The notes beneath the pieces are model-generated. The model was given only the letters and a program-made list of their open reading frames with translations, ran no database searches and had not been told where the DNA came from. This document shows, piece by piece, positions 40,144 to 51,688 of a DNA stretch of 64,000 nucleotides (within the stretch, counting starts at the first letter, position 1; each line of letters opens with the position of its first letter). The DNA comes from Balneolaceae bacterium. Lineage in GTDB: Bacteria; Bacteroidota; Rhodothermia; Balneolales; Balneolaceae. The position numbers were made by a program, and so were the translations under genes. The DNA lies in the NCBI GenBank assembly GCA_009711805.1, contig VEMX01000004.1, forward strand, positions 1 through 64,000, written 5' to 3'.

Positions 40144-40227
40144 GCTCACGTGGTGGAATTGGTAGACACGCACGCTTGAGGGGCGTGTGGCCTAACGGCC
40201 GTGGAGGTTCGACTCCTCTCGTGAGCA
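40144..40227 (+). tRNA. tRNA-Leu (anticodon GAG)
   Basis: Acceptor arms GCTCACG (40144-40150) and CGTGAGC (40220-40226) pair perfectly. The anticodon stem CACGC/GCGTG encloses TTGAGGG, giving GAG. A long variable arm (GGCC-TAAC-GGCC) marks a class II tRNA. The T arm GGAGG-TTCGACT-CCTCT is normal. CCA is not encoded: ACAC follows the acceptor stem. A 3' partial copy at 40566 still reads ACCA. Confidence 0.95.
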
Positions 40228-40301
40228 CACTTTTTAACGTCTGTTTCTTAAAAATTAAGGAACAGACTTTTTTATTTATATCTGGTATTATAAGCTTAGT
40301 G

Positions 40302-40550
40302 ATGTATACCGTGTATGCCATATCCAGTCTTTCCCGAAATTATATTTACGTGGGATTCTCTTCGCAGCTGCCCGAAAGGCTTAAGAGGCACAATGAAGGT
40401 AAAAACAAAACTACTAAGCCTTATGCTCCTTTTGAGTTGATTTATACAAAAGGCTTTGATACCCGAGTTGAAGCCAGGAAGTATGAAAAGTATCTAAAAT
40501 CGGGTTCTGGTAAAGAGTTTTTGAAACGTTTGGTAAAGAAGAAAGAATAG
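40302..40550 (+). CDS. GIY-YIG nuclease-domain protein (UvrC-N/YhbQ-like)
   Basis: The frame is open upstream through the tRNA, but the ATG at 40302 gives an 82-residue single-domain protein. It starts YTVYAISSLSRNYIYVGFSS, the two-strand GIY...YIG core. RLKRHNEG holds the conserved Arg, and EARKYEKYLKSGSG holds the catalytic Glu62. It probably nicks or cuts DNA with one metal ion. It begins 75 bases after the tRNA-Leu end and ends 15 bases before a repeated 3' part of the same tRNA, so it lies between tRNA-derived repeats. Confidence 0.85.
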   Translation: MYTVYAISSLSRNYIYVGFSSQLPERLKRHNEGKNKTTKPYAPFELIYTKGFDTRVEARKYEKYLKSGSGKEFLKRLVKKKE

Positions 40551-40565
40551 ATGCACATTAGTTAC

Positions 40566-40647
40566 CGCACGCTTGAGGGGCGTGTGGCCTAACGGCCGTG
40601 GAGGCCTGCCTGCCGGCAAAGGCAGGTTCGACTCCTCTCGTGAGCAC
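40566..40647 (+). pseudogene. Partial repeat of tRNA-Leu (3' portion) with a 22-base insertion
   Basis: 40566-40604 repeats 40169-40207 without change (39 bases, anticodon arm and variable arm). A 22-base palindrome, CCTGCC...GGCAGG (40605-40626), is inserted at the T-stem/loop edge. Then 40627-40647 repeats 40208-40228 without change. The repeat ends ACCA, so the CCA tail is present here. The 5' acceptor arm and D arm are absent. It looks like the attR side of a tRNA-site insertion. Confidence 0.85.
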
Positions 40648-40790
40648 CAAATAATTAAGCCAAGTAACATTATATTAGTTACTTGGCTTTTTTATTGTTG
40701 AGTTTTTGTACATTTTTTGTGCAACTACATCGCGACTCTGACTCCTCGCCCGTGCCCAAAACCTATCAAAATTATCGGCTACCTCGTAGG

Positions 40791-41112: not shown

Positions 41113-43827
41113 ATGCCCTTAACGCCTGAACAGAAAGCTCGTCAAAAGATAGACCGTATGCTTGCACAAGCCGGTTGGGTAGTTCAGGATTATCGAAAAA
41201 TTGATTTTAAAGCCGGAAAAGGTATAGCGGTTCGGGAATACCCTACCAATACCGGTCCTGCCGACTACATGTTGTTGGTGGATAAAAAGCCCGTTGGAGT
41301 GATTGAAGCTAAACGGGAAGATGAAGGACATCGCATCTCTAAAGTTGAGGAACAAACTACCCGGTATGCCACCAGTGAGCTGAAACACTTTGGGGAAGTT
41401 GAAATCCCATTTCTATATGAAAGTACCGGAGAGATTACACGTTTTACCGATCAGCGAGATCCCAAGCCAAGAGCCCGTGAGGTTTTTTCTTTTCATCAAC
41501 CAGAAACATTGCTAAAAAGAACAGAACAGCGTTCCCTTCGGGATCGACTTCAGGATTTACCCGAGTTGAATGTTGATGGGTTACGCGAGTGCCAAGTCAC
41601 AGCCATCAATAATCTTGATCAGTCTTTTAATGAAGCCCGACCAAAGGCATTGGTTCAGATGGCGACCGGCTCAGGGAAGACTTTCACAGCTATCACCACC
41701 ATTTATCGGCTGCTAAAACATGCCGGTGCCAAGCGGGTACTTTTCCTGGTGGATACAAAGAATCTCGGGGAGCAGGCGGAGCAGGAGTTTATGCAATACA
41801 CGCCTTCCGATGACAACAGAAAGTTTACCGAGTTGTATCCTGTTCAGCGATTGCAATCCAGTTATATCGCACCTGATAATAAAGTGACGATCAGTACCAT
41901 TCAGCGACTCTACTCCATGATGAAAGGCGAAGAAATTGGTGAGTTGGAAGAGGAGAAAAATCCTAATGAACTACATATGCCGGATGAGCCGCTGCCGGTA
42001 GTTTATAATGAAGAGATGCCTATTGAGTTTTTTGATGTAATAGTGATTGATGAGTGTCATCGCTCAATCTATAATCTCTGGAAACAGGTGCTCGATTACT
42101 TTGACAGTTTTCTTGTTGGTTTAACAGCCACACCAGATAAACGCACCTTTGCCTTCTTCAACGAAAATGTGGTGAGTGAATATTCCCATGAAAAAGCTGT
42201 AGCCGATGGAGTGAATGTTGGGTATGATGTTTATACCATCGAGACAAAGATCAGCAAGGAAGGCGCTAAGATTGAAGCAGAAGAATATGTAGATAAGCGG
42301 GAAAAGCTTACCCGAAAGACCCGGTGGGAACAGCTGGAAGATGAGGTGGAATATACCGGCACCTCGTTGGATAAAGACATTGTGAACCCCAGTCAAATAC
42401 GCAACATCATCAAGGCGTTTAAACATAAACTGCCTGAAATTTTTCCCGGAAGAAATGAAGTTCCCAAAACCCTCATCTTTGCCAAAACTGACAGTCACGC
42501 CGATGACATCATTGGAAAGGTGAGAGATGAATTTGCTGAAAGAAATGAGTTTTGTAAAAAGGTGACGTACAAAATTGAGGAAGATCCTAAATCAGTATTA
42601 GCCCAGTTTCGGAATGAGTATTACCCGAGGATTGCAGTCACCGTAGATATGATTGCCACCGGTACGGATGTGAAACCGTTGGAGTGCCTGCTGTTTATGC
42701 GGGACGTGAAGAGCCGGAACTATTTCGAGCAGATGAAAGGTCGGGGTACCCGAACCCTTGATAAAGAAGGACTGATCAAAGTAACACCCTCTGCCAAAAC
42801 CGATAAAACCCATTTTGTGATCGTTGATGCGGTTGGAGTGACTAAATCCGTGAAAACCGATAGTCGCCCTTTAGAAAGGAAAAGAACCGTTCCGCTTAAA
42901 GACTTACTCTTTGGCATTATGATGGGAAGTGAAGATGAAGATTTCTATACCTCCGCAGCTAACCGCCTGGCCCGGCTTGAACAACAACTGGATGACAGCG
43001 ATAAGGAAGACTTTAAAGAGAAAACCGGCAAGAGCATTAACCGGGTAACGCATGAACTGCTAGATGCCTTCAACCCGGATGCCATTGAGGACTTGGCAGA
43101 GAGTGAAGGAATTGAACCCGATGAAGCCCGGAAACAACTCATTGAAAAAGCCTCTTCTATTTTTACCGGTGATATCATTGACTACATCGACAATGTTCGG
43201 AAGACCAAAGAACAAATCATTGATGTGGTGAATACCGATGAAGTCACTTATGCCGGATGGGACAAAGAACAGAAGAAGCAGGCGGAAACCCTGGTTGAAA
43301 ACTTTAAAGCATTCCTGGAAGAACACAAAGATGAAATTACGGCACTCTCCATTTTCTATAACGAACCCTACCGGCGCCGGGAAGTCACTTTTAAGATGCT
43401 GAAAGAAGTGCTGGATTTGATCAAGCAAAAGAAGCCTCAGATGGCTCCGCTGAATGTATGGAATGCCTGGGAGCAGGTGAAAGGTGCGAACGGCACCTCC
43501 CCTAAAAATGAACTCATAGCGTTGGTTTCACTAATTCGTACGGCCTCGGGGATTGATGAGCAGCTTACCCCTTACGATAAAACCGTAAACAAGAACTTCC
43601 AGGATTGGATCTTTGCCAAACATGCCGGAAAGCCCAAGTTCAGCGAAGAGCAAATGAACTGGCTGCGGATGATCAAAGATCATATTGCCACCTCCGTACA
43701 TTTCAGTAAAGATGATCTGGATTATGCTCCATTTGATGCCAAAGGCGGGATTGGGAAAATGTACCAGCTATTCGGGGATGTGATAGATCGCATTATTGAA
43801 GAGATGAATGAAGAGTTGGTGGCTTGA
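41113..43827 (+). CDS. hsdR: Type I restriction enzyme, R (restriction and translocase) subunit
   Basis: 904 residues. The N-terminal nuclease holds the PD-(D/E)xK core (GPADYMLLVDKKPVGVIEAK, residues 48-67 or so). Two RecA-like motor domains carry MATGSGKTFTAI (Walker A), VIDECHRSIYN (motif II), VGLTATPDKR (motif III) and the GRGTRT motif VI. The last 250 residues resemble the EcoEI R C-terminal domain. It cuts unmodified DNA after translocation, together with HsdS and HsdM. It is the first gene of a seven-gene locus on the plus strand; hsdS and hsdM lie farther downstream, which is unusual. Confidence 0.95.
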   Translation: MPLTPEQKARQKIDRMLAQAGWVVQDYRKIDFKAGKGIAVREYPTNTGPADYMLLVDKKPVGVIEAKREDEGHRISKVEEQTTRYATSELKHFGEVEIPFLYESTGEITRFTDQRDPKPRAREVFSFHQPETLLKRTEQRSLRDRLQDLPELNVDGLRECQVTAINNLDQSFNEARPKALVQMATGSGKTFTAITTIYRLLKHAGAKRVLFLVDTKNLGEQAEQEFMQYTPSDDNRKFTELYPVQRLQSSYIAPDNKVTISTIQRLYSMMKGEEIGELEEEKNPNELHMPDEPLPVVYNEEMPIEFFDVIVIDECHRSIYNLWKQVLDYFDSFLVGLTATPDKRTFAFFNENVVSEYSHEKAVADGVNVGYDVYTIETKISKEGAKIEAEEYVDKREKLTRKTRWEQLEDEVEYTGTSLDKDIVNPSQIRNIIKAFKHKLPEIFPGRNEVPKTLIFAKTDSHADDIIGKVRDEFAERNEFCKKVTYKIEEDPKSVLAQFRNEYYPRIAVTVDMIATGTDVKPLECLLFMRDVKSRNYFEQMKGRGTRTLDKEGLIKVTPSAKTDKTHFVIVDAVGVTKSVKTDSRPLERKRTVPLKDLLFGIMMGSEDEDFYTSAANRLARLEQQLDDSDKEDFKEKTGKSINRVTHELLDAFNPDAIEDLAESEGIEPDEARKQLIEKASSIFTGDIIDYIDNVRKTKEQIIDVVNTDEVTYAGWDKEQKKQAETLVENFKAFLEEHKDEITALSIFYNEPYRRREVTFKMLKEVLDLIKQKKPQMAPLNVWNAWEQVKGANGTSPKNELIALVSLIRTASGIDEQLTPYDKTVNKNFQDWIFAKHAGKPKFSEEQMNWLRMIKDHIATSVHFSKDDLDYAPFDAKGGIGKMYQLFGDVIDRIIEEMNEELVA

Positions 43828-43870
43828 CTGGGGAATTAACTATGCCAACAGTTTAACCCTAATTCATCGA

Positions 43871-44100
43871 TCAGACGGCTCTTTGCAGGATTTGAAAGTA
43901 TGGGGCGTAAAATCAGCCGTCAGATCGGGTTCGGAGGTTAATTTCAGGCACTTCGGTCTGACGGCTCAAAGTCCGTCTGACCGATTGTTTGGCGCGAATA
44001 CCCAAACCTTTATTCAAGCCCATTGGAATATAGATTTCCTTATTCTAATGAAACAACATATATTAGAATAAATGATTTTATAATACAACGCATTAGAATA
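43871..44100 (+). promoter_or_regulatory. Spacer before fic with palindromes and CATTAGAATA boxes
   Basis: TCAGACGG (43871-43878) and CCGTCTGA (43973-43980) form imperfect arms of a 110-bp palindrome. After it come CATTGGAATA (44021-44030), TATTCTAATG (44041-44050), TATTAGAATA (44061-44070) and CATTAGAATA (44091-44100, ending on the A of the fic ATG). These boxes are likely binding sites for a regulator, perhaps the Fic protein, whose C-terminus is helix-turn-helix-like. Confidence 0.5.
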
Positions 44101-45185
44101 TGGAAAATATTAAGTACCACAATCTGCCTCTGCTCCCTCCTGAAAAGGATGTTGTACCTCCTTTGAAGCTGATCACAGAAGCTTACCATGCAATCGGTGA
44201 ACTAAAGGGAAGGATGTATCGGGATGTTATAAATCCCAACTTGATTGTAGGACCGCTTCTGAATAAAGAGGCGGTGGCCAGTTCAAAAATTGAGGGGACG
44301 CAAACCACCGTTGAAGAAGTCCTGCGATATGAAGCCGGAGATCGTAAAGAAGAAGACCCCGACATTTTGGAAGTATTGAATTACCGGCAGGCAATTTATG
44401 AATCCATAGAGTATTTAAAGCAAAAGCCTTCAGGAGAAAATCTTGTAAAGGCGCTTCATCAAACCCTGCTTTCTTCGGTACGAGGAAAGGAAAAAGATCC
44501 AGGCAATTTCAGGAGGGCAACGGTTCATCTTGGCAAACCGGGAAGTAAAGTGGATGAGGCAGCATACATCCCGCCTAAACCGGATGATATTACCGGATTG
44601 ATGAAGAACTGGGTTGAGTTTGTGCATGACTCAGACATGGATTTGTTGATAAAGGTAGCGATTGCGCATTACCAGTTTGAGGCTATTCACCCTTTTATGG
44701 ATGGAAACGGCCGGGTGGGAAGGCTTATGATCCCTATCATTATGTTTGAACAGGAAATGATCCCTTATCCCTATTTCTATATCAGTGAGTATTTTGAACA
44801 GCACCGGTCAGAGTATTACGAAGCTTTGCGGTTGGTGGACCGTGAACGGGATTGGGATGCCTGGGTTAATTTTTTCCTGGTAGCGGTGAAAGAGACGGCC
44901 ATACAGATGCAGGCAAAAGTGGTAAGTATGTATGAACTGTATGGGCGGGTGAAAGAGGAGATTGTAACGATGAACTCTCAATATGCCCAGGTATTCCTTG
45001 ATTTGCTGTTTGAACGACCGATCATCTCCGGAAAGGAAATACCGCAAAGACTCGAACAGCCCAGTACCCAAACCATTTACAATTTGACGAAGAAATTTGA
45101 GAAAGCGGGAATTATCCGGGAAATAACCGGACAGAAAAGAAACCAGGTATATGCCTTTGATGCCCTGCTCGACATCATTAAGTAA
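44100..45185 (+). CDS. Fic-domain protein (AMPylator-type) with C-terminal winged HTH
   Basis: 361 residues. An N-terminal region carries the inhibitory motif SSKIEG (61-66; S/T-x-x-x-E-G), which in class II Fic proteins blocks the active site. The active-site motif HPFMDGNGRVGR (197-208) is perfect. The tail after residue 300 looks like a winged helix (PQRLEQPSTQTIYNLTKKFE). Fic enzymes transfer AMP or similar groups to proteins. Placed between hsdR and tcmP, it may control or accompany the restriction system; the target is unknown. Confidence 0.9.
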   Translation: MENIKYHNLPLLPPEKDVVPPLKLITEAYHAIGELKGRMYRDVINPNLIVGPLLNKEAVASSKIEGTQTTVEEVLRYEAGDRKEEDPDILEVLNYRQAIYESIEYLKQKPSGENLVKALHQTLLSSVRGKEKDPGNFRRATVHLGKPGSKVDEAAYIPPKPDDITGLMKNWVEFVHDSDMDLLIKVAIAHYQFEAIHPFMDGNGRVGRLMIPIIMFEQEMIPYPYFYISEYFEQHRSEYYEALRLVDRERDWDAWVNFFLVAVKETAIQMQAKVVSMYELYGRVKEEIVTMNSQYAQVFLDLLFERPIISGKEIPQRLEQPSTQTIYNLTKKFEKAGIIREITGQKRNQVYAFDALLDIIK

Positions 45186-45239
45186 TTCTTATTCCAGTCC
45201 ATTGGACTATGGAATTTCTTAATCTAAAAAACCAAAGAA

Positions 45240-45249
45240 CATTGGAATA
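45240..45249 (+). promoter_or_regulatory. CATTGGAATA box after fic
   Basis: The same decamer as at 44021-44030. A short hairpin (AGTCC-ATT-GGACT) and ATTCC / GGAAT arms lie at 45191-45215. This spacer may carry a promoter for tcmP. Confidence 0.4.
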
Positions 45250-45303
45250 AGGGTGACGGGGGTTGACACTCTTAGTAATTATCATCAAACAAGAGGTGCA
45301 AAA

Positions 45304-46428
45304 ATGAAAGATTCACAAATGAACATGATGGAGCACTCTGAAGCTAAAATCGAGTTGCTAAGTAAATATATGGATAGATTTTTAAACATCATGAATCAGA
45401 ATAGCTACATCCATGATGTTCATTTATACGATTTATTCTGTGGAGAAGGTATATATCCAAATGGAGGAAAAGGCAGTCCAATTATCTTTTTAGAAAAAAT
45501 CAAAAATCTTCATTTTGTAAATAAGGCGAAATCTCATCCTCATGTTGATTTTCATTGCTTTTTCAATGATTTAGACGATGAAAAACTTTTAAAATTAACT
45601 GCTTCAATTGAAGAAAAGAATCTCCATTATGAAGAAATGGGAACCCTGAAAATCTCTAACCAGGATTATAAAGATAAATTAGAGGAAGTAGTTTCAATCC
45701 TGGAAAAGCTTAAAGGAAGTGAGAAAGCTTTCATTTTTATTGATCCCTATGGTTACAAAGAAATAAAGGCAGATGATATTAAAAGACTTCTTTCATCAAA
45801 CAACTCTGAGGTTCTTCTTTTCTTGCCAACACAGAATATGTTCAGATTTGAAACTAAGGGAACACCGGAAAGTTTACAAAGATTCATCTCTGAACTTGTG
45901 CCAATTGAAGAATGGCCTAAAAGTGAAACAGGGCTTAATTTTATTGAAACATTACTCGACAAATTCAGAGAATATTTAGGTTCTGAATATTTTGCCGACT
46001 CTTTTATTATCACAAGAGATACTAACCAATACTTTTGCCTCTTCTTCTTCACCAGTCATATACGTGGTTTTGAAAAAATGCTTGAGGCTAAATGGGCCAT
46101 TGATGAAGAAGAAGGCAGAAGTTGGAAACAAGGCATGAGGACAGATTTATTTGCAGATCAAGAAAAAATTGCAAAAACAGAAAAATTAAAATCTGCCCTT
46201 TACCATTATCTTGAAGAGGAAAGAACCAATGGTGATCTGTATAAATTTGGTTTGAAGCAGGGATTTCTACCTAAGCATGTCAATTCAGTTCTAAAAGAGT
46301 ATCAGATAAATGATATTATAACAGTTGAAAAAACAGATGGAAGTAAAATTAGAAGAGGTGCATTTTATACTGGTTATGAATATTTCAGAGATGAGCCTTC
46401 AAAAATCATAGTTATTAGACGGAGATAG
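45304..46428 (+). CDS. tcmP: Three-Cys-motif partner protein TcmP
   Basis: 374 residues from the ATG at 45304. A GTG at 45253 would add 17 residues, but AGAGGTG is close before the ATG. The N-terminus (HSEAKIELLSKYMDRFLNIM), the DLFCGEGIYPNGGKGSP loop and FIFIDPYGYKEI (D-P-Y-G) are TcmP family marks and look like a methyltransferase-like Rossmann fold. TcmP genes occur beside three-Cys-motif (Gp37/Gp68) genes, as here, with 2 bases between. The reaction is not known. AT-rich compared with hsdR and hsdM. Confidence 0.8.
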   Translation: MKDSQMNMMEHSEAKIELLSKYMDRFLNIMNQNSYIHDVHLYDLFCGEGIYPNGGKGSPIIFLEKIKNLHFVNKAKSHPHVDFHCFFNDLDDEKLLKLTASIEEKNLHYEEMGTLKISNQDYKDKLEEVVSILEKLKGSEKAFIFIDPYGYKEIKADDIKRLLSSNNSEVLLFLPTQNMFRFETKGTPESLQRFISELVPIEEWPKSETGLNFIETLLDKFREYLGSEYFADSFIITRDTNQYFCLFFFTSHIRGFEKMLEAKWAIDEEEGRSWKQGMRTDLFADQEKIAKTEKLKSALYHYLEEERTNGDLYKFGLKQGFLPKHVNSVLKEYQINDIITVEKTDGSKIRRGAFYTGYEYFRDEPSKIIVIRRR

Positions 46429-46430
46429 TT

Positions 46431-47165
46431 ATGTCAAAATCATCAATCGAATGGACAGAATTAACTTGGAATCCTGTAACAGGATGCACAAAAGTATCAC
46501 AAGGGTGTAAATTTTGCTATGCAGAAGTCATGGCAAAGCGACTTAAAGCAATGGGTGTAGAAAAGTATAAAGACGGGTTTAAAGTTAGAACTCATCCAGA
46601 CACACTTGAAGAACCCTACAAGTGGAAAAAATCACGAGTAGTGTTTGTTAACTCAATGAGTGATTTATTCCACCCTCAAGTACCCATCGAGTTCATTCAG
46701 GATGTATTTAAAGTAATGAATGATAATCCACGCCATGTATTTCAAATTCTAACTAAAAGAACTGAATTACTTTTAGAATATGATAAGGCCGGACTCTTGA
46801 ACTGGACTGATAATATTTGGATGGGGACTTCTGTAGAAGACAATCGTGTGAAAGAAAGAATTGATGTATTAAGTAAGACCAACGCACACACAAAATTTCT
46901 TTCTTGTGAGCCACTTATCGGGCCTTTAACAGATATGAATTTATCGAACATTGATTGGGTGATTGTTGGTGGAGAAAGTGGTCATAATCCCCGCCCTATG
47001 AAACCTGAATGGGTTATTGATATTAAAGCTCAATGTGAGAATGCTTCTGTACCGTTCTTCTTTAAACAATGGGGTGGTAGAAACAAAAAGAAAAACGGTA
47101 GGAAATTGATGAAACGGACATGGGATGAGATGCCGGAAATGCCTGAACAATTTGCAACAGCTTAG
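46431..47165 (+). CDS. Three-Cys-motif protein, phage Gp37/Gp68 family (DUF5131)
   Basis: 244 residues. The cysteines Cys19, Cys26 and Cys29 lie in GCTKVSQGCKFCYAEVMAKR, the pattern C-x3-S-x-G-C-x2-C-Y-A that recalls a radical-SAM-like iron-sulfur site. MSDLFHPQVP, FQILTKR and VGGESGHNPRPM are the other family blocks. These are found in phages and bacterial mobile DNA, normally with TcmP. The substrate is unknown. It starts 2 bases after tcmP and ends 3 bases before hsdS, so the four genes share a transcript. Confidence 0.85.
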   Translation: MSKSSIEWTELTWNPVTGCTKVSQGCKFCYAEVMAKRLKAMGVEKYKDGFKVRTHPDTLEEPYKWKKSRVVFVNSMSDLFHPQVPIEFIQDVFKVMNDNPRHVFQILTKRTELLLEYDKAGLLNWTDNIWMGTSVEDNRVKERIDVLSKTNAHTKFLSCEPLIGPLTDMNLSNIDWVIVGGESGHNPRPMKPEWVIDIKAQCENASVPFFFKQWGGRNKKKNGRKLMKRTWDEMPEMPEQFATA

Positions 47166-47168
47166 TTT

Positions 47169-49217
47169 ATGTGGAAAAAAAAGCAGTTAGGTGAAGTAGC
47201 TGAATATGTTAATGGTAGAGCCTTTAAGCCAAAAGAATGGAAAAAAAGTGGATTACCGATTATTCGTATTCAAAACCTTAATGATGAAACAGCACCCTAC
47301 AATTATTCAGATGAAAAACACAAAGATAAATATTTAGTCAAGAATGGTGATCTATTATTCGCATGGTCGGCATCGTTAGGTGCATACATTTGGAAAGGAG
47401 GCGATGCATGGTTAAATCAACATATTTTTAGAGTAGATCACGATGAATCTATAAACAAAAAATATTTGTATTACTGTTTGACTAATGTAGTTGAAGAACT
47501 GTATGCTAAAACGCATGGCTCAGGAATGGTTCATGTAACTAAAGGGAAATTTGAAGAAACAGAAGTACCAGTTCCTTCAATTGAAGAACAAAACCGTATC
47601 GTAGAAAAAATAGAAGAGCTATTCAGTGAGCTGGATAATGGGGTAGAGAACCTGAAGAAAGCCCAAAAGCAGCTCAAGATCTACCGGCAGGCGGTGCTGA
47701 AGGATGCCTTTGAAGGCAAGCTCACCAAGGAATGGCGGGAGCAACAAGATGACCTGCCCACCCCGGAAGAACTTCTTCAGCAAATCAAAGCTGAACGCAA
47801 AGCCCACCGCCAACGCGAACTCACCGAATGGGAAAAGGAAGTGGAGCAATGGGAGAAGGATGGTGAGCCTGGGAGGAAACCAAGGAAGCCGAGTAAACCA
47901 AAAAATCTACCTCAGATTACGAAAGATGACTTGAGTTCCTTGCCGGAAATCCCATCTACTTGGAGGTACACATATTTATATGACCTTGGCGATCTTGGAA
48001 GAGGTAAGTCTAAGCATAGACCAAGAAATGATGATAAGTTATTCAAAGATGGAACAATCCCTTTCATACAAACAGGAGAAGTAAAAGCCGCTACAAAATA
48101 CCTTAGGACTTTTGAAGATACTTATAATGAGTTTGGTTTAAGCCAAAGTAAATTATGGCCAAAGGGTACTTTATGCATAACCATTGCAGCCAACATAGCT
48201 GAAACTGCAATTTTAGATATTAATGCTTGTTTTCCTGATAGTATTGTTGGCTATACGAGTTACGCCTCAATTACTGATAAACTTTTTGTCTTTTACTTTA
48301 TCCAATCTGTACAAAAAAGATTGGAAGCTTTTGCTCCTGCAACTGCTCAAAAAAATATCAATCTAACCACTCTTGAAAATTTATTAGTACCTCTTTGTTC
48401 ACTTAAAGAACAAAAAGAAATCGTTAACGAAATCGAATCCCGCCTTTCCGTGGTTGATCAATTAGAACAAACCATAAAAGAAAACCTGCAAAAAGCGGAG
48501 GCTCTACGGCAGAGTATTTTGAAGAAGGCTTTTGGTGGGGAGTTGGTGAAAGAAGAGCCTGCTAAAATCCTTGAGTTTCAACAATCTCCACAAAGATATT
48601 ACAAGAATAAACCAACAGATCTACATGCAGGCTTAATGTGTAAGATTATAGATGCCCATTACAAAAATGAAAAGCATCTTCAAAAATTGAATCATGTGAA
48701 ATGTGAAAAGATTATCCACATGCTCGAATCACATGAAGGAATTGAACTGGAGCGAAAACCAGTAAAAGATGCTGCCGGTCCAGACGATTTTCCTAAACTG
48801 AAAAAGATAGAGCACAGAGCAAAATTCAAAAATTGGTTTGAGAAGGATAAATCTCTTGGGGGAAAGTTTGGCTATGGCTATAAACCCAAAAAAAGTTTGG
48901 GATATGCAATATCAGATCTGGAAAAAATAGAAGGATTGCCCTTGGAAGCCATTGATAAGATGATAGGCCTCTTTCTAAAAATGGATAAAGAAAGAGCGGA
49001 AATAGTAGCTACACTTTATGCAGCCTGGAATAATTTTTTGATTGATGGCCATCAACCATCTGATGAAGAGATTGTGCGTGCTGCCCGTGAAGACTGGTCA
49101 AAGCAAAAGTTAAATATTAAAAGGCATAGATTCTTTAAAGCCTTGCCCTGGATGAGAAAAAATGGGTTAATTCCAGCTGGAAAAGGTAAAAGAGTTCTAT
49201 CGAGAAACAGTAAATGA
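47169..49217 (+). CDS. hsdS: Type I specificity subunit S with extra C-terminal domain
   Basis: 682 residues. The first ~460 are a normal HsdS: TRD1 (about 1-145), a conserved coiled region (150-245) including NRIVEKIEELFSELDNG, TRD2 (about 255-415), and a second conserved coil ending LRQSILKKAFGGELV. The remaining 222 residues (461-682) are an added domain of unknown fold with LHAGLMCKIIDAHY and GYGYKPKKSLGYAI. Conserved coils are GC-rich and the TRDs AT-rich, as if exchanged. It defines the DNA sequence recognised by the complex. Confidence 0.9.
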   Translation: MWKKKQLGEVAEYVNGRAFKPKEWKKSGLPIIRIQNLNDETAPYNYSDEKHKDKYLVKNGDLLFAWSASLGAYIWKGGDAWLNQHIFRVDHDESINKKYLYYCLTNVVEELYAKTHGSGMVHVTKGKFEETEVPVPSIEEQNRIVEKIEELFSELDNGVENLKKAQKQLKIYRQAVLKDAFEGKLTKEWREQQDDLPTPEELLQQIKAERKAHRQRELTEWEKEVEQWEKDGEPGRKPRKPSKPKNLPQITKDDLSSLPEIPSTWRYTYLYDLGDLGRGKSKHRPRNDDKLFKDGTIPFIQTGEVKAATKYLRTFEDTYNEFGLSQSKLWPKGTLCITIAANIAETAILDINACFPDSIVGYTSYASITDKLFVFYFIQSVQKRLEAFAPATAQKNINLTTLENLLVPLCSLKEQKEIVNEIESRLSVVDQLEQTIKENLQKAEALRQSILKKAFGGELVKEEPAKILEFQQSPQRYYKNKPTDLHAGLMCKIIDAHYKNEKHLQKLNHVKCEKIIHMLESHEGIELERKPVKDAAGPDDFPKLKKIEHRAKFKNWFEKDKSLGGKFGYGYKPKKSLGYAISDLEKIEGLPLEAIDKMIGLFLKMDKERAEIVATLYAAWNNFLIDGHQPSDEEIVRAAREDWSKQKLNIKRHRFFKALPWMRKNGLIPAGKGKRVLSRNSK

Positions 49218-49218
49218 A

Positions 49219-49887
49219 ATGAATCAAAAAATGAGTGAGAAATACTTCCTACAGGTAGAATATAAAATGGTATCAGATGTGCCTAATTATGAACCTGACA
49301 GATACATTAATACATACCAGCTGAGTGTATTGGCAAGCACATTAGAAGAAGAAAAATACTATGAAATTGGTAGGGGTGAAGTAAGACTTATTCTGGAGAG
49401 TTTAGCTGTAAATGATCACTTCGATATGTTTAATGTATTTGACAGCTTTCATACTACAATGGAGCTTGGTGGAGAAATATATGATTTTGATGAGAGACAG
49501 ATAATAGATGAGATTAGACAGTTTTATGATGATGACATCTTATATCCGAATATTCTCTTGTTAGAAAGACTGGAATTAGCAAAAGAATACAGGGGGCTTG
49601 GAATTGGGAAAAGAGTAATAAAAGATATTGTAGAAAGATTTTCGTTCTGTGCTGGACTAATTGCTCTAAAAGCATTCCCCTTGCAATTAGAAAGTGGACG
49701 AGGTTTGGATGATGATTGGAAGAAAAGAGTAGCATTGGAGGAATTAGAAAGAGATGAGGAAAAAGTGAAGTATAAACTATATCACTATTACCAAAATCTT
49801 GGTTTCGAAAGTCCTTTAAATAATGAGTTTTTCTTTATTAACCCCGCTTTAAAAAATAAAAAATTTGAAAGCATTTCACTTGAGTAA
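49219..49887 (+). CDS. GNAT-family acetyltransferase-like protein
   Basis: 222 residues. The acetyl-CoA loop ELAKEYRGLGIGKRVIKDIV (R-x-x-G-x-G) lies near residue 120-140, followed by the second motif region (FCAGLIALKAFPLQLESG). The last helices (YHYYQNLGFESPLNNEF) match the GNAT end strand. The start codon is 1 base after the hsdS stop. Its substrate is unknown. AT-rich, like hsdS-tail and tcmP. Its position between hsdS and hsdM suggests a role in the locus. Confidence 0.75.
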   Translation: MNQKMSEKYFLQVEYKMVSDVPNYEPDRYINTYQLSVLASTLEEEKYYEIGRGEVRLILESLAVNDHFDMFNVFDSFHTTMELGGEIYDFDERQIIDEIRQFYDDDILYPNILLLERLELAKEYRGLGIGKRVIKDIVERFSFCAGLIALKAFPLQLESGRGLDDDWKKRVALEELERDEEKVKYKLYHYYQNLGFESPLNNEFFFINPALKNKKFESISLE

Positions 49888-49923
49888 AAAACCTCAATCT
49901 AACTCAGAATTTTAAAACTGAAT

Positions 49924-49968
49924 ATTACCGCCAATGGAATCATACAAAAGATCTGGAATTTCTGTCAC
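49924..49968 (+). pseudogene. Vestige of a second hsdM 5' end
   Basis: These 15 codons match hsdM codons 1-15 at 38 of 45 bases, with the last 24 identical. ATT takes the place of the hsdM ATG. The reading frame then leaves the homology (LSRIAKEG). It is a scar of replacement or insertion at the hsdM front edge. Confidence 0.8.
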
Positions 49969-50110
49969 TTGTCAAGAATAGCTAAAGAAGGGTGTTTAAT
50001 AGGCGGCAATGAAAACCATAGACAAAAAAACCCGGCTTCATAACCGATATGGGAGTCGGAAGAGGAAGTACCGGGACTGCGGTTGAAAGATAATAATTAT
50101 AAAAAAAATA

Positions 50111-50194
50111 AACTGTGATATTTGTGATAGGCGAGATAATCTGTGATACATCCGAGCCATCATGGATATCAAAAATATCACACCCATCACAGTT
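50111..50194 (+). promoter_or_regulatory. Palindrome of TGTGAT / ATCACA boxes before hsdM
   Basis: TGTGAT at 50114-50119, 50123-50128 and 50142-50147, and ATCACA at 50177-50182 and 50186-50191. The AACTGTGAT / ATCACAGTT ends are perfect complements. The outer boxes on each side are spaced 9 bases apart. It looks like a repressor or CRP/FNR-like operator region, or a hairpin leader of hsdM. Confidence 0.55.
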
Positions 50195-50212
50195 AAAAAT
50201 AAGAAATAGACT

Positions 50213-51688
50213 ATGACCACAAACGGAATTGTGCAAAAGATCTGGAATTTCTGTCACACTCTAAGAGACGATGGGGTGGGCTACGGGGATTACCTGGAGC
50301 AAATTACCTATCTGCTGTTTTTGAAGATGGCGCATGAATACAGTCAGCCACCCTACAACCGAGATACCAACATTCCTGAAGAATACAACTGGGAAAGCCT
50401 GGTGGAAAAGAGCGGTTCCGAATTGGAGCAACACTATGTTACCCTGCTTCGGGAGTTAGGGAAAGAAGACGGGATGCTTGGACAGATCTTCGTGAAAGCC
50501 CAAAACAAAATTCAAGACCCGGCCAAGCTCTACAAACTCATCCAAATGCTGGACGCTGAAAATTGGGTGATGTTGGGTGCGGATGTTAAAGGAGATATCT
50601 ATGAGGGATTGCTGGAGAAGAATGCGGAGGATACGAAGTCGGGAGCCGGACAGTACTTCACGCCCCGTGCGCTGATCAAAACCATGGTAGAGTGTGTCCG
50701 ACCGGAACCCCAGAAAACCATAGCCGATCCTGCAGCCGGAACCGGAGGCTTTTTCCTTGCCGCCTATGATTATCTGCTCGAAAACTACGATCTCGACAAA
50801 GAACAAAAGGAGTTTCTAAAGTACAACACCTTTAAAGGCTGGGAGATCGTGCCCAATACAGCTCGCATGGCTCTTATGAATCTCTTTCTTCATAACATTG
50901 GGGATATCAATTCAACCCCGCCCATTGTCCGAAATGATAGCCTGATCTCAGAACCTGATAAGAAGTTCGACTATGTGTTAGCTAATCCCCCTTTTGGAAA
51001 GAAAAGCAGTATCACCGTCACCAATGAAGACGGCACCCAATCCAAAGAAGCCCTCACTTACAACCGTCAGGATTTTTGGGCAACCTCATCCAACAAACAA
51101 CTCAACTTTGTTCAGCATATCAATGCCATGTCGAAAGCGGATGGAGAAGCGGCGGTAGTAATTCCGGATAATGTATTGTTTGAAGGCGGTGCCGGTGAAA
51201 TGGTAAGAAAGAAACTTCTGCAAAATGCAGATGTCCACACGGTACTCCGATTGCCTACCGGTATATTTTATGCTCAGGGAGTAAAGGCAAACGTAGTTTT
51301 CTTTGATGCCAAACCCGCCTCCAAAGATCCCTGGACCAAAGAAGTGTGGTATTACGATTATCGAACCAACATCCACCACACCCTAAAGAAACACCCACTC
51401 AGCTTTGATGATCTCAAAGATTTTGTAGAGCTGTACAATCCGGAAAACCGGCACCAACGCAAAGAAACCTGGAGCGAGGACAATCCCGATGGTCGCTGGA
51501 GAAAGTACACCTACGAAGAGATCACCAACCGGGACAAAACCAGCATGGATATCTTCTGGATCAAAGACGATGATCTCACCGATTTGGAAAACCTGCCCGA
51601 CCCTGATATCCTTGCAGTAGAAATTGTGGAAAATATCGAGGCGGGGCTGGAGAGTTTCCGGGAGATTGTGAGTTCGTTGGAGGAGTAA
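50213..51688 (+). CDS. hsdM: Type I DNA methyltransferase subunit M
   Basis: 491 residues. The HsdM N-terminal helical domain covers about 1-125. The catalytic domain follows, with GAGQYFTPR (146-152 or so), the SAM-binding DPAAGTGGF (172-180) and the N6-adenine NPPF at 258-261. It methylates the recognition sequence together with HsdS, protecting host DNA, and forms the restriction complex with HsdR. It is the last gene of the locus, preceded by an operator-like palindrome and a vestigial copy of its 5' end. Confidence 0.96.
   Translation: MTTNGIVQKIWNFCHTLRDDGVGYGDYLEQITYLLFLKMAHEYSQPPYNRDTNIPEEYNWESLVEKSGSELEQHYVTLLRELGKEDGMLGQIFVKAQNKIQDPAKLYKLIQMLDAENWVMLGADVKGDIYEGLLEKNAEDTKSGAGQYFTPRALIKTMVECVRPEPQKTIADPAAGTGGFFLAAYDYLLENYDLDKEQKEFLKYNTFKGWEIVPNTARMALMNLFLHNIGDINSTPPIVRNDSLISEPDKKFDYVLANPPFGKKSSITVTNEDGTQSKEALTYNRQDFWATSSNKQLNFVQHINAMSKADGEAAVVIPDNVLFEGGAGEMVRKKLLQNADVHTVLRLPTGIFYAQGVKANVVFFDAKPASKDPWTKEVWYYDYRTNIHHTLKKHPLSFDDLKDFVELYNPENRHQRKETWSEDNPDGRWRKYTYEEITNRDKTSMDIFWIKDDDLTDLENLPDPDILAVEIVENIEAGLESFREIVSSLEE

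What the first reader, a model, noticed from the sequence alone, without database searches (positions are those of the whole stretch)
40144..40647. GIY-YIG nuclease gene sits between tRNA-Leu and a repeated 3' part of the same tRNA
Seen directly: tRNA-Leu(GAG) at 40144, an 82-residue GIY-YIG gene at 40302, and at 40566 the exact 3' part of that tRNA (39 + 21 bases). The whole unit is about 0.4 kb with no integrase. GIY-YIG domains are known in homing endonucleases. The inference is that this is a minimal mobile element using tRNA-Leu as its target and restoring the gene on insertion.
Basis: partly seen in the sequence, partly recalled or inferred. Interest (0 to 1): 0.75.

Follow-up and report, generated by a model that had tools for sequence, protein, structure and literature searches.

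The report
Tiny nuclease element parasitising tRNA genes
A 0.3-0.4 kb stretch holding one very small nuclease gene and a broken copy of part of a tRNA gene is one member of a widespread family of minute mobile elements that settle beside tRNA genes, and at the best-resolved site insertion leaves a working tRNA behind.

Summary
In detail: an intact tRNA-Leu(GAG), a terminator, an 82-aa GIY-YIG gene, then the tRNA's 3' part (positions 26-85) broken at the T-loop by a 22-nt palindrome. It is not a one-off. Relatives of this bare GIY-YIG domain occur in 92 of 296 sampled genomes of the phylum and in Ignavibacteriota, Omnitrophota and Patescibacteria. In the loci fetched, 131 of 169 units lie within 600 bp of a tRNA, always on its strand (108 distinct tRNA sites, 24 with tandem arrays). 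Of 135 units tested, 119 have a tRNA fragment on the far side of the gene; control tRNAs had such copies at 2 real loci among 30. Protein clades track tRNA identity across phyla. The same tRNA gene is occupied or empty in species of one genus. One pair (94-96% identical flanks) shows a 299-bp element plus a 62-bp duplication that leaves the tRNA whole; its tRNA fragment differs from the host's tRNA. dN/dS is mostly 0.05-0.4. Best reading: a minimal homing-type mobile element whose nuclease targets tRNA genes. Cleavage is inferred; the palindrome's role is unresolved. T-even phage SegB is the closest known thing. Nothing on it was found in open-access literature.

The parts
40144..40228 (+). 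intact tRNA-Leu(GAG), the target gene
   Evidence: ARAGORN; Rfam RF00005; orthologous empty tRNAs in same-family genomes
40239..40267 (+). intrinsic terminator hairpin of the intact tRNA copy
   Evidence: sequence; fold -15.4 kcal/mol, z -6.3
40302..40550 (+). 82-aa bare GIY-YIG nuclease gene, the only gene of the element
   Evidence: conserved Y5, YVG 16-18, R26, H30, E62 in 30 relatives; AlphaFold mean pLDDT 92
40566..40604 (+). tRNA remnant, positions 26-64 (anticodon arm, variable arm, 5' T stem)
   Evidence: exact repeat
40605..40626 (+). 22-nt palindrome interrupting the remnant at the T arm
   Evidence: equivalent hairpins in other remnants
40627..40647 (+). tRNA remnant, positions 65-85 (T-loop to acceptor), followed by CA completing CCA
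   Evidence: exact repeat
40657..40689 (+). second terminator hairpin, after the remnant
   Evidence: fold -20.5 kcal/mol, z -6.7

Best explanation
This is a minimal, integrase-less mobile element: one gene for a bare GIY-YIG nuclease domain plus a tRNA fragment, sitting at a tRNA gene. Shown by comparison: it is gained or lost at particular tRNA genes, it always lies on the tRNA's strand, its protein lineage keeps to one tRNA type across hosts, and at the best-resolved site insertion leaves an intact tRNA plus a broken fragment on the far side of the nuclease gene. Inferred: the nuclease cuts an empty tRNA gene, and repair copies the element in, using the tRNA sequence at its two ends as homology arms, so that it can move between species with unrelated flanks. 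The tRNA repeats then also allow unequal recombination, giving tandem arrays and loss. Least certain is the palindrome: it may be the element's end, a target-disrupting insert, or a generic loop-seeking repeat that persists because the remnant is not functional.
For: Association: 131/169 units within 600 bp of a tRNA, 131/131 same strand; 108 distinct tRNA sites, 24 with tandem units. Far-side tRNA remnant in 119/135 units, versus 2 real loci (both hairpin-bearing, probable relics) plus one weak 11-nt match among 30 control tRNAs. Target fidelity: 148-protein tree, tRNA amino-acid labels need 36 changes against 89.5 shuffled, 0/200 as low, with the Leu clade spanning Bacteroidota, Balneolota, Ignavibacteriota, Omnitrophota and Patescibacteria. 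Presence/absence: tRNA-Met occupied in 5 and empty in 4 species of one genus, tRNA-Leu(CAA) occupied in 2 and empty in 8; tRNA-Leu(GAG) occupied and empty among related genomes. Junction: G293 against G330, 96.2% over 1623 bp left and 94.5% over 1163 bp right, net insertion 361 bp = 299 + 62-bp duplication from T-loop to terminator. The remnant's GTTCCTTCGGGAGTTCGGG matches neither host's tRNA yet is shared by the elements of G293 and G327. Selection: dN/dS mostly 0.05-0.4. Relics: decayed GIY copy (L219), gene-less remnants L063 and L070.
Against: No cleavage data. The protein has no separate DNA-binding module (82 aa), unlike known homing endonucleases. The intact tRNA beside the element can be identical to an empty one (L219 against L220), so self-cutting has to be limited in some unknown way. 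In several loci (L253, L222, L206, L167) both copies have nearly the same terminator, which looks like local duplication rather than import; in the window they differ. 30 units lack a nearby tRNA; 9 of these have tRNA-like flanks and one clade of 8 is a different, inverted-repeat element. The best junction is one pair of genomes.
Confidence: 0.7

Rival explanations
1. The GIY-YIG protein is a transposase-like mobiliser of small palindromes that enter hairpin loops (an analogue of RAYT/REP); the tRNA fragment is a by-product and the palindrome is the real mobile unit.
For: 68/73 inserts lie in cloverleaf loops against 0.63 expected, p=2e-9. Genomes with the exact palindrome carry GIY units more often (18/23 against 74/273, Fisher p=1.6e-6). 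At the one precise junction the element appears to end with the hairpin. A related GIY clade is flanked by inverted repeats CACCCCGT...ACGGGGT.
Against: Most palindrome copies lie far from any GIY unit or tRNA. Palindrome sequences differ between elements while tRNA association is constant. Genome co-occurrence may be shared ancestry.
Confidence: 0.15
2. Host-side explanation: a vertically kept gene beside tRNAs (for tRNA processing or repair), with tandem duplication making the tRNA fragments.
For: Purifying selection; same-strand placement suggests co-transcription.
Against: Sporadic presence within a genus, side switches 21 times on the tree, foreign tRNA patch in the remnant, pseudogenes and relics, spread across phyla by tRNA type rather than host.
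Confidence: 0.08
3. The tRNA repeat is an att-site scar of an island or prophage that used tRNA-Leu, and the GIY gene is a passenger.
For: tRNA 3' ends are classical att sites; a type I restriction locus follows in the window.
Against: No integrase among the neighbouring genes examined. Mirror-image units (5' remnant, gene, intact tRNA) are nearly as common as 3' ones, 47 against 61 sites. The repeat brackets the GIY gene, about 0.3-0.4 kb apart.
Confidence: 0.04

Closest known systems
T-even phage SegB, free-standing GIY-YIG homing endonuclease (PMC13096335, PMC2988022)
   Same: GIY-YIG nuclease gene without intron or intein, next to tRNA genes of many isotypes; shown to cut tRNA-region DNA and to drive tandem amplification of a tRNA-segB unit.
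   Different: SegB is phage-borne. The present protein is 82 aa with only the catalytic fold, is chromosomal, had no match to the window protein in the phage or plasmid collections searched, carries a tRNA fragment interrupted by a palindrome, and its lineages keep to one tRNA type.
UPF0213 proteins and Slx1-type GIY-YIG domains
   Same: Best sequence and fold relatives among solved structures: 1ywl, 1zg2 and Slx1.
   Different: UPF0213 entries are structural-genomics proteins of unknown function; Slx1 is a branched-DNA nuclease working with Slx4. No mobility is attached to either here.
tRNA-integrating islands and prophages (tyrosine recombinase, att in tRNA 3' end)
   Same: A tRNA gene is kept whole and part of it is repeated at the other border.
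   Different: No integrase; one ~80-aa gene; 5' and 3' versions both common; fragment interrupted by palindromes.
REP/RAYT systems
   Same: Small palindromes linked with a small nuclease gene (from general knowledge of RAYTs).
   Different: RAYTs are HUH (Y1) enzymes; here a GIY-YIG fold and a tRNA target.

Membership tests
free-standing GIY-YIG homing endonuclease (Seg type) | GIY-YIG catalytic motifs | tested here: met
   Pfam; conserved Y5, Y16-V-G18, R26, H30, E62 in 30 relatives
free-standing GIY-YIG homing endonuclease (Seg type) | not inside an intron or intein | tested here: met
   tRNA uninterrupted; no group I intron match among Rfam hits around the gene
free-standing GIY-YIG homing endonuclease (Seg type) | occupied and empty alleles of one target site in close relatives | tested here: met
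   (relatives' sites; same-family empties only for the window's own site)
free-standing GIY-YIG homing endonuclease (Seg type) | site-specific cut in the empty allele | not testable with these tools
   needs protein
free-standing GIY-YIG homing endonuclease (Seg type) | biased inheritance with co-conversion of flanks | tested here: inconclusive
   foreign tRNA patch in the G293 and G327 remnants suggests transfer; no cross was done
free-standing GIY-YIG homing endonuclease (Seg type) | catalytic domain joined to a DNA-binding module (PMC2988022) | tested here: not met
   82 aa, catalytic fold only; so it is described as working like one, not filed as a Seg protein
tRNA-integrating island (tyrosine recombinase) | integrase gene | tested here: not met
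   none in the element; the neighbours scanned are restriction and Fic genes
REP/RAYT | HUH Y1 transposase | tested here: not met
   GIY-YIG fold instead

The most novel reading that the evidence does not exclude
A phylum-crossing class of about 0.3-kb mobile elements in which a bare ~80-aa GIY-YIG domain alone recognises particular tRNA genes (perhaps as folded hairpins), moves by tRNA-sequence homology while keeping the host tRNA working, collects or mobilises loop-seeking palindromes, and at times carries a whole tRNA gene to new places.
Probability: 0.35. Interest if true: 0.9.

Novelty: new variant of a known kind. Interest (0 to 1): 0.78.

Why it matters
If right, tRNA genes of many bacteria host what may be among the smallest autonomous mobile elements, with one ~80-aa gene, likely overlooked because the genes are short and read as stray GIY-YIG or 'excinuclease' ORFs. 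It offers a natural system for site choice by a GIY-YIG domain without a DNA-binding module, a possible source of tRNA fragments and tandem tRNA-linked arrays, and a possible route for tRNA genes to be copied and moved (G018 carries tRNA-Ser(CGA) with two units where the two comparable congeners have no tRNA). It also makes a clean question testable: how an element can target an essential gene and leave it working.

Tried and rejected
Palindrome as a high-copy REP: rejected; exact copy in 23/296 genomes, 1-12 copies, reversed control 0, and the window's 22-mer occurs 4 times in its genome within 3 mismatches. Palindrome as exclusive to GIY elements: rejected; most copies lie elsewhere. Hairpin at one fixed cut site: rejected; mostly D-loop when the remnant is 5', mostly T-loop when 3', some in anticodon or variable loops, even within the Leu clade. 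Recoded, cut-proof rescue tRNA: no support; an occupied copy equals an empty copy (L219, L220). Island att scar: see rivals. Phage or plasmid vector: no match in phages or plasmids, 3 loci in viral contigs, not followed up. The tRNA-less clade as targeting another known RNA: no Rfam match. Tree limits: 77 columns, many forks unresolved. Literature: ten full-text searches of open-access papers found no description of the chromosomal elements; subscription papers and preprints were not searchable.

Full report
OBSERVATION. The break in the repeat is a 22-nt palindrome, CCTGCCTGCCGGCAAAGGCAGG, at 40605-40626. Both tRNA copies are followed by their own terminators, which differ. The intact tRNA is therefore the functional gene and the second copy a broken 3' fragment.

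THE PROTEIN. It is a bare GIY-YIG domain (Pfam E=4.6e-17) with Y5, Y16-V-G18, R26, H30 and E62 kept in nearly all of 30 aligned relatives. AlphaFold gives a confident single domain (mean pLDDT 92). The nearest solved relatives are UPF0213 proteins and Slx1, then UvrC and I-TevI catalytic domains. There is no separate DNA-binding module. Pairs of related copies, including tandem copies, show dN/dS mostly between 0.05 and 0.4, so the protein is under selection.

A FAMILY AT tRNA GENES. A search with this protein returned 42 loci from Bacteroidota, Balneolota, Ignavibacteriota, Omnitrophota and several Patescibacteria. A profile found close relatives in 92 of 296 genomes of the phylum, up to 16 per genome. 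Of 169 distinct units in the fetched loci, 131 lie within 600 bp of a tRNA and all 131 are on the tRNA's strand, 73 with the tRNA upstream and 58 downstream. This is 108 distinct tRNA sites: Leu 43, Ser 22, Arg 15, Asn 9, Cys 6, Met 5 and others; 24 sites carry two or more units. Of 135 units tested, 119 have a fragment of that same tRNA on the far side of the gene. Among 30 control tRNAs without the gene, only loci L063 and L070 had a real second fragment, both hairpin-bearing and probably relics, plus one weak 11-nt match. There are two mirror-image layouts: intact tRNA, gene, 3' fragment (as in the window) and 5' fragment, gene, intact tRNA.

TARGET FIDELITY. On a tree of 148 proteins, tRNA amino-acid identity needs 36 changes against 89.5 for shuffled labels (0 of 200 as low). 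The Leu lineage spans several phyla, while the side of the tRNA changes 21 times and the Leu anticodon 13 times. The alignment has only 77 columns and many forks are open, so branching detail should not be leaned on; near-copies also add to the clustering.

MOBILITY AND JUNCTIONS. Same-family genomes have tRNA-Leu(GAG) followed by a terminator and no GIY gene. At the orthologous Leu(GAG)-Leu(TAG) locus of another family of the order, three genomes are empty and two occupied. Within one genus tRNA-Met is occupied in five and empty in four species, and tRNA-Leu(CAA) occupied in two and empty in eight. The best pair is G293 (occupied) and G330 (empty): flanks match at 96.2% over 1623 bp and 94.5% over 1163 bp. 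The occupied allele has 361 extra bp: a 299-bp element and a 62-bp direct duplication running from the tRNA T-loop to the end of the terminator. The element's right end is a stretch of tRNA (GTTCCTTCGGGAGTTCGGG) that differs from the G293 tRNA and from the G327 tRNA, although both elements carry it, followed by the palindrome, which abuts the host's TTCGAGTCC. So the element brings tRNA sequence of foreign origin and leaves an intact tRNA. This is shown for relatives; for the window it is inferred from the same anatomy.

A tRNA AS CARGO. In G018 a tRNA-Ser(CGA) with two 5'-type units occupies a place where the congeners G354 and G237 have both flanks (about 79-82% identity) some 120 bp apart and no tRNA. 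This suggests that a whole tRNA gene moved with the element; it is a single case, and loss in the others is not excluded.

THE PALINDROME. Of 73 distinct inserts in remnants, 68 lie in cloverleaf loops against 63% expected (p=2e-9), mainly the D-loop in 5' fragments and the T-loop in 3' fragments; 63 contain a stem of at least 5 bp. The exact 20-mer CCTGCCTGCCGGCAGGCAGG occurs in 23 of 296 genomes, 1-12 copies, mostly away from tRNAs. In the window's genome the other copies of the 22-mer lie in a different repeated, hairpin-like sequence. It therefore looks like a general loop-seeking repeat, although genomes that have it carry the GIY family more often (Fisher p=1.6e-6; shared ancestry not corrected). 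Whether it ends the element, spoils a cleavage site or merely accumulates in a dead tRNA copy is open.

MECHANISM. The most economical reading is homing without an intron: the nuclease cuts the tRNA gene of an empty allele, one broken end pairs with the element's intact tRNA and the other with its tRNA fragment, and repair copies the unit between them. This explains tRNA sequence on both sides, the intact tRNA, both orientations of layout, foreign tRNA patches and movement across species whose flanks are unrelated. Unequal recombination between the repeats explains arrays (five units at 450-bp spacing in G271) and loss. The cut itself, the recognised sequence or structure, and how the intact copy escapes are not shown. 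The identity of an occupied and an empty tRNA (L219 and L220) means protection is not by recoding. Similar terminators at some loci point to local duplication at least in part.

COMPARISON. SegB of T-even phages is the closest known system: a free-standing GIY-YIG homing endonuclease tied to tRNAs that drives tandem amplification of a tRNA-segB unit (PMC13096335, PMC2988022). The present family works like it in outline but fails the feature of a separate DNA-binding module, and was not found with this protein in the phage or plasmid collections. I therefore call it a new variant of a known kind and not a Seg protein.

Noticed in passing
L170, L175, L180, L194, L195, L198, L201 (and L181): A sister clade of the GIY-YIG gene is flanked by inverted repeats (CACCCCGT.A...T.ACGGGGT) and sits inside protein genes, twice apparently near the same motif of a tyrosine-recombinase gene: an IS-like ~0.3-kb element whose only gene is GIY-YIG.
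   Followed up: partly
L195 (G034), minus strand about 719-1130: A GIY unit follows a truncated start of an rfbB-like gene (MNKRIIVTGGAGFI) and is followed by a complete rfbB-like start (MNILVTGGAGFIGSN), the same remnant-gene-intact layout on a protein gene.
   Followed up: partly
L288 (G018 C4:49000-53000) against L282 and L283: tRNA-Ser(CGA) with two GIY units at a locus where two congeners have the flanks but no tRNA; candidate for a tRNA gene carried by the element.
   Followed up: partly
L291, L293, L294 (window's genome, contigs 6 and 91); also L125, L126, L156: The CCTGCC palindrome sits inside longer repeats starting TAACGACCCAGCG or TAACGACGTTG that look like integron attC sites (resemblance only), and in L117 and L144-L146 inside GTCATTGCGA-type repeats; it may prefer hairpin loops in general.
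   Followed up: partly
window 41113-51688: Type I restriction locus (hsdR, Fic/DOC protein, GMT-wHTH protein, DUF5131, hsdS-type specificity protein, hsdM) directly downstream of the remnant, no integrase among the proteins scanned.
   Followed up: partly
L091 (G328), L026, L042: Orphan units with tRNA-Leu fragments but no intact tRNA beside them, suggesting loss of the tRNA or movement of the unit alone.
   Followed up: no
L003/L005 (G000 C80), L007, L008, L011: The window's own genome has further GIY units beside tRNA-Met (two in tandem), tRNA-Asn, tRNA-Ser and tRNA-Gly.
   Followed up: partly
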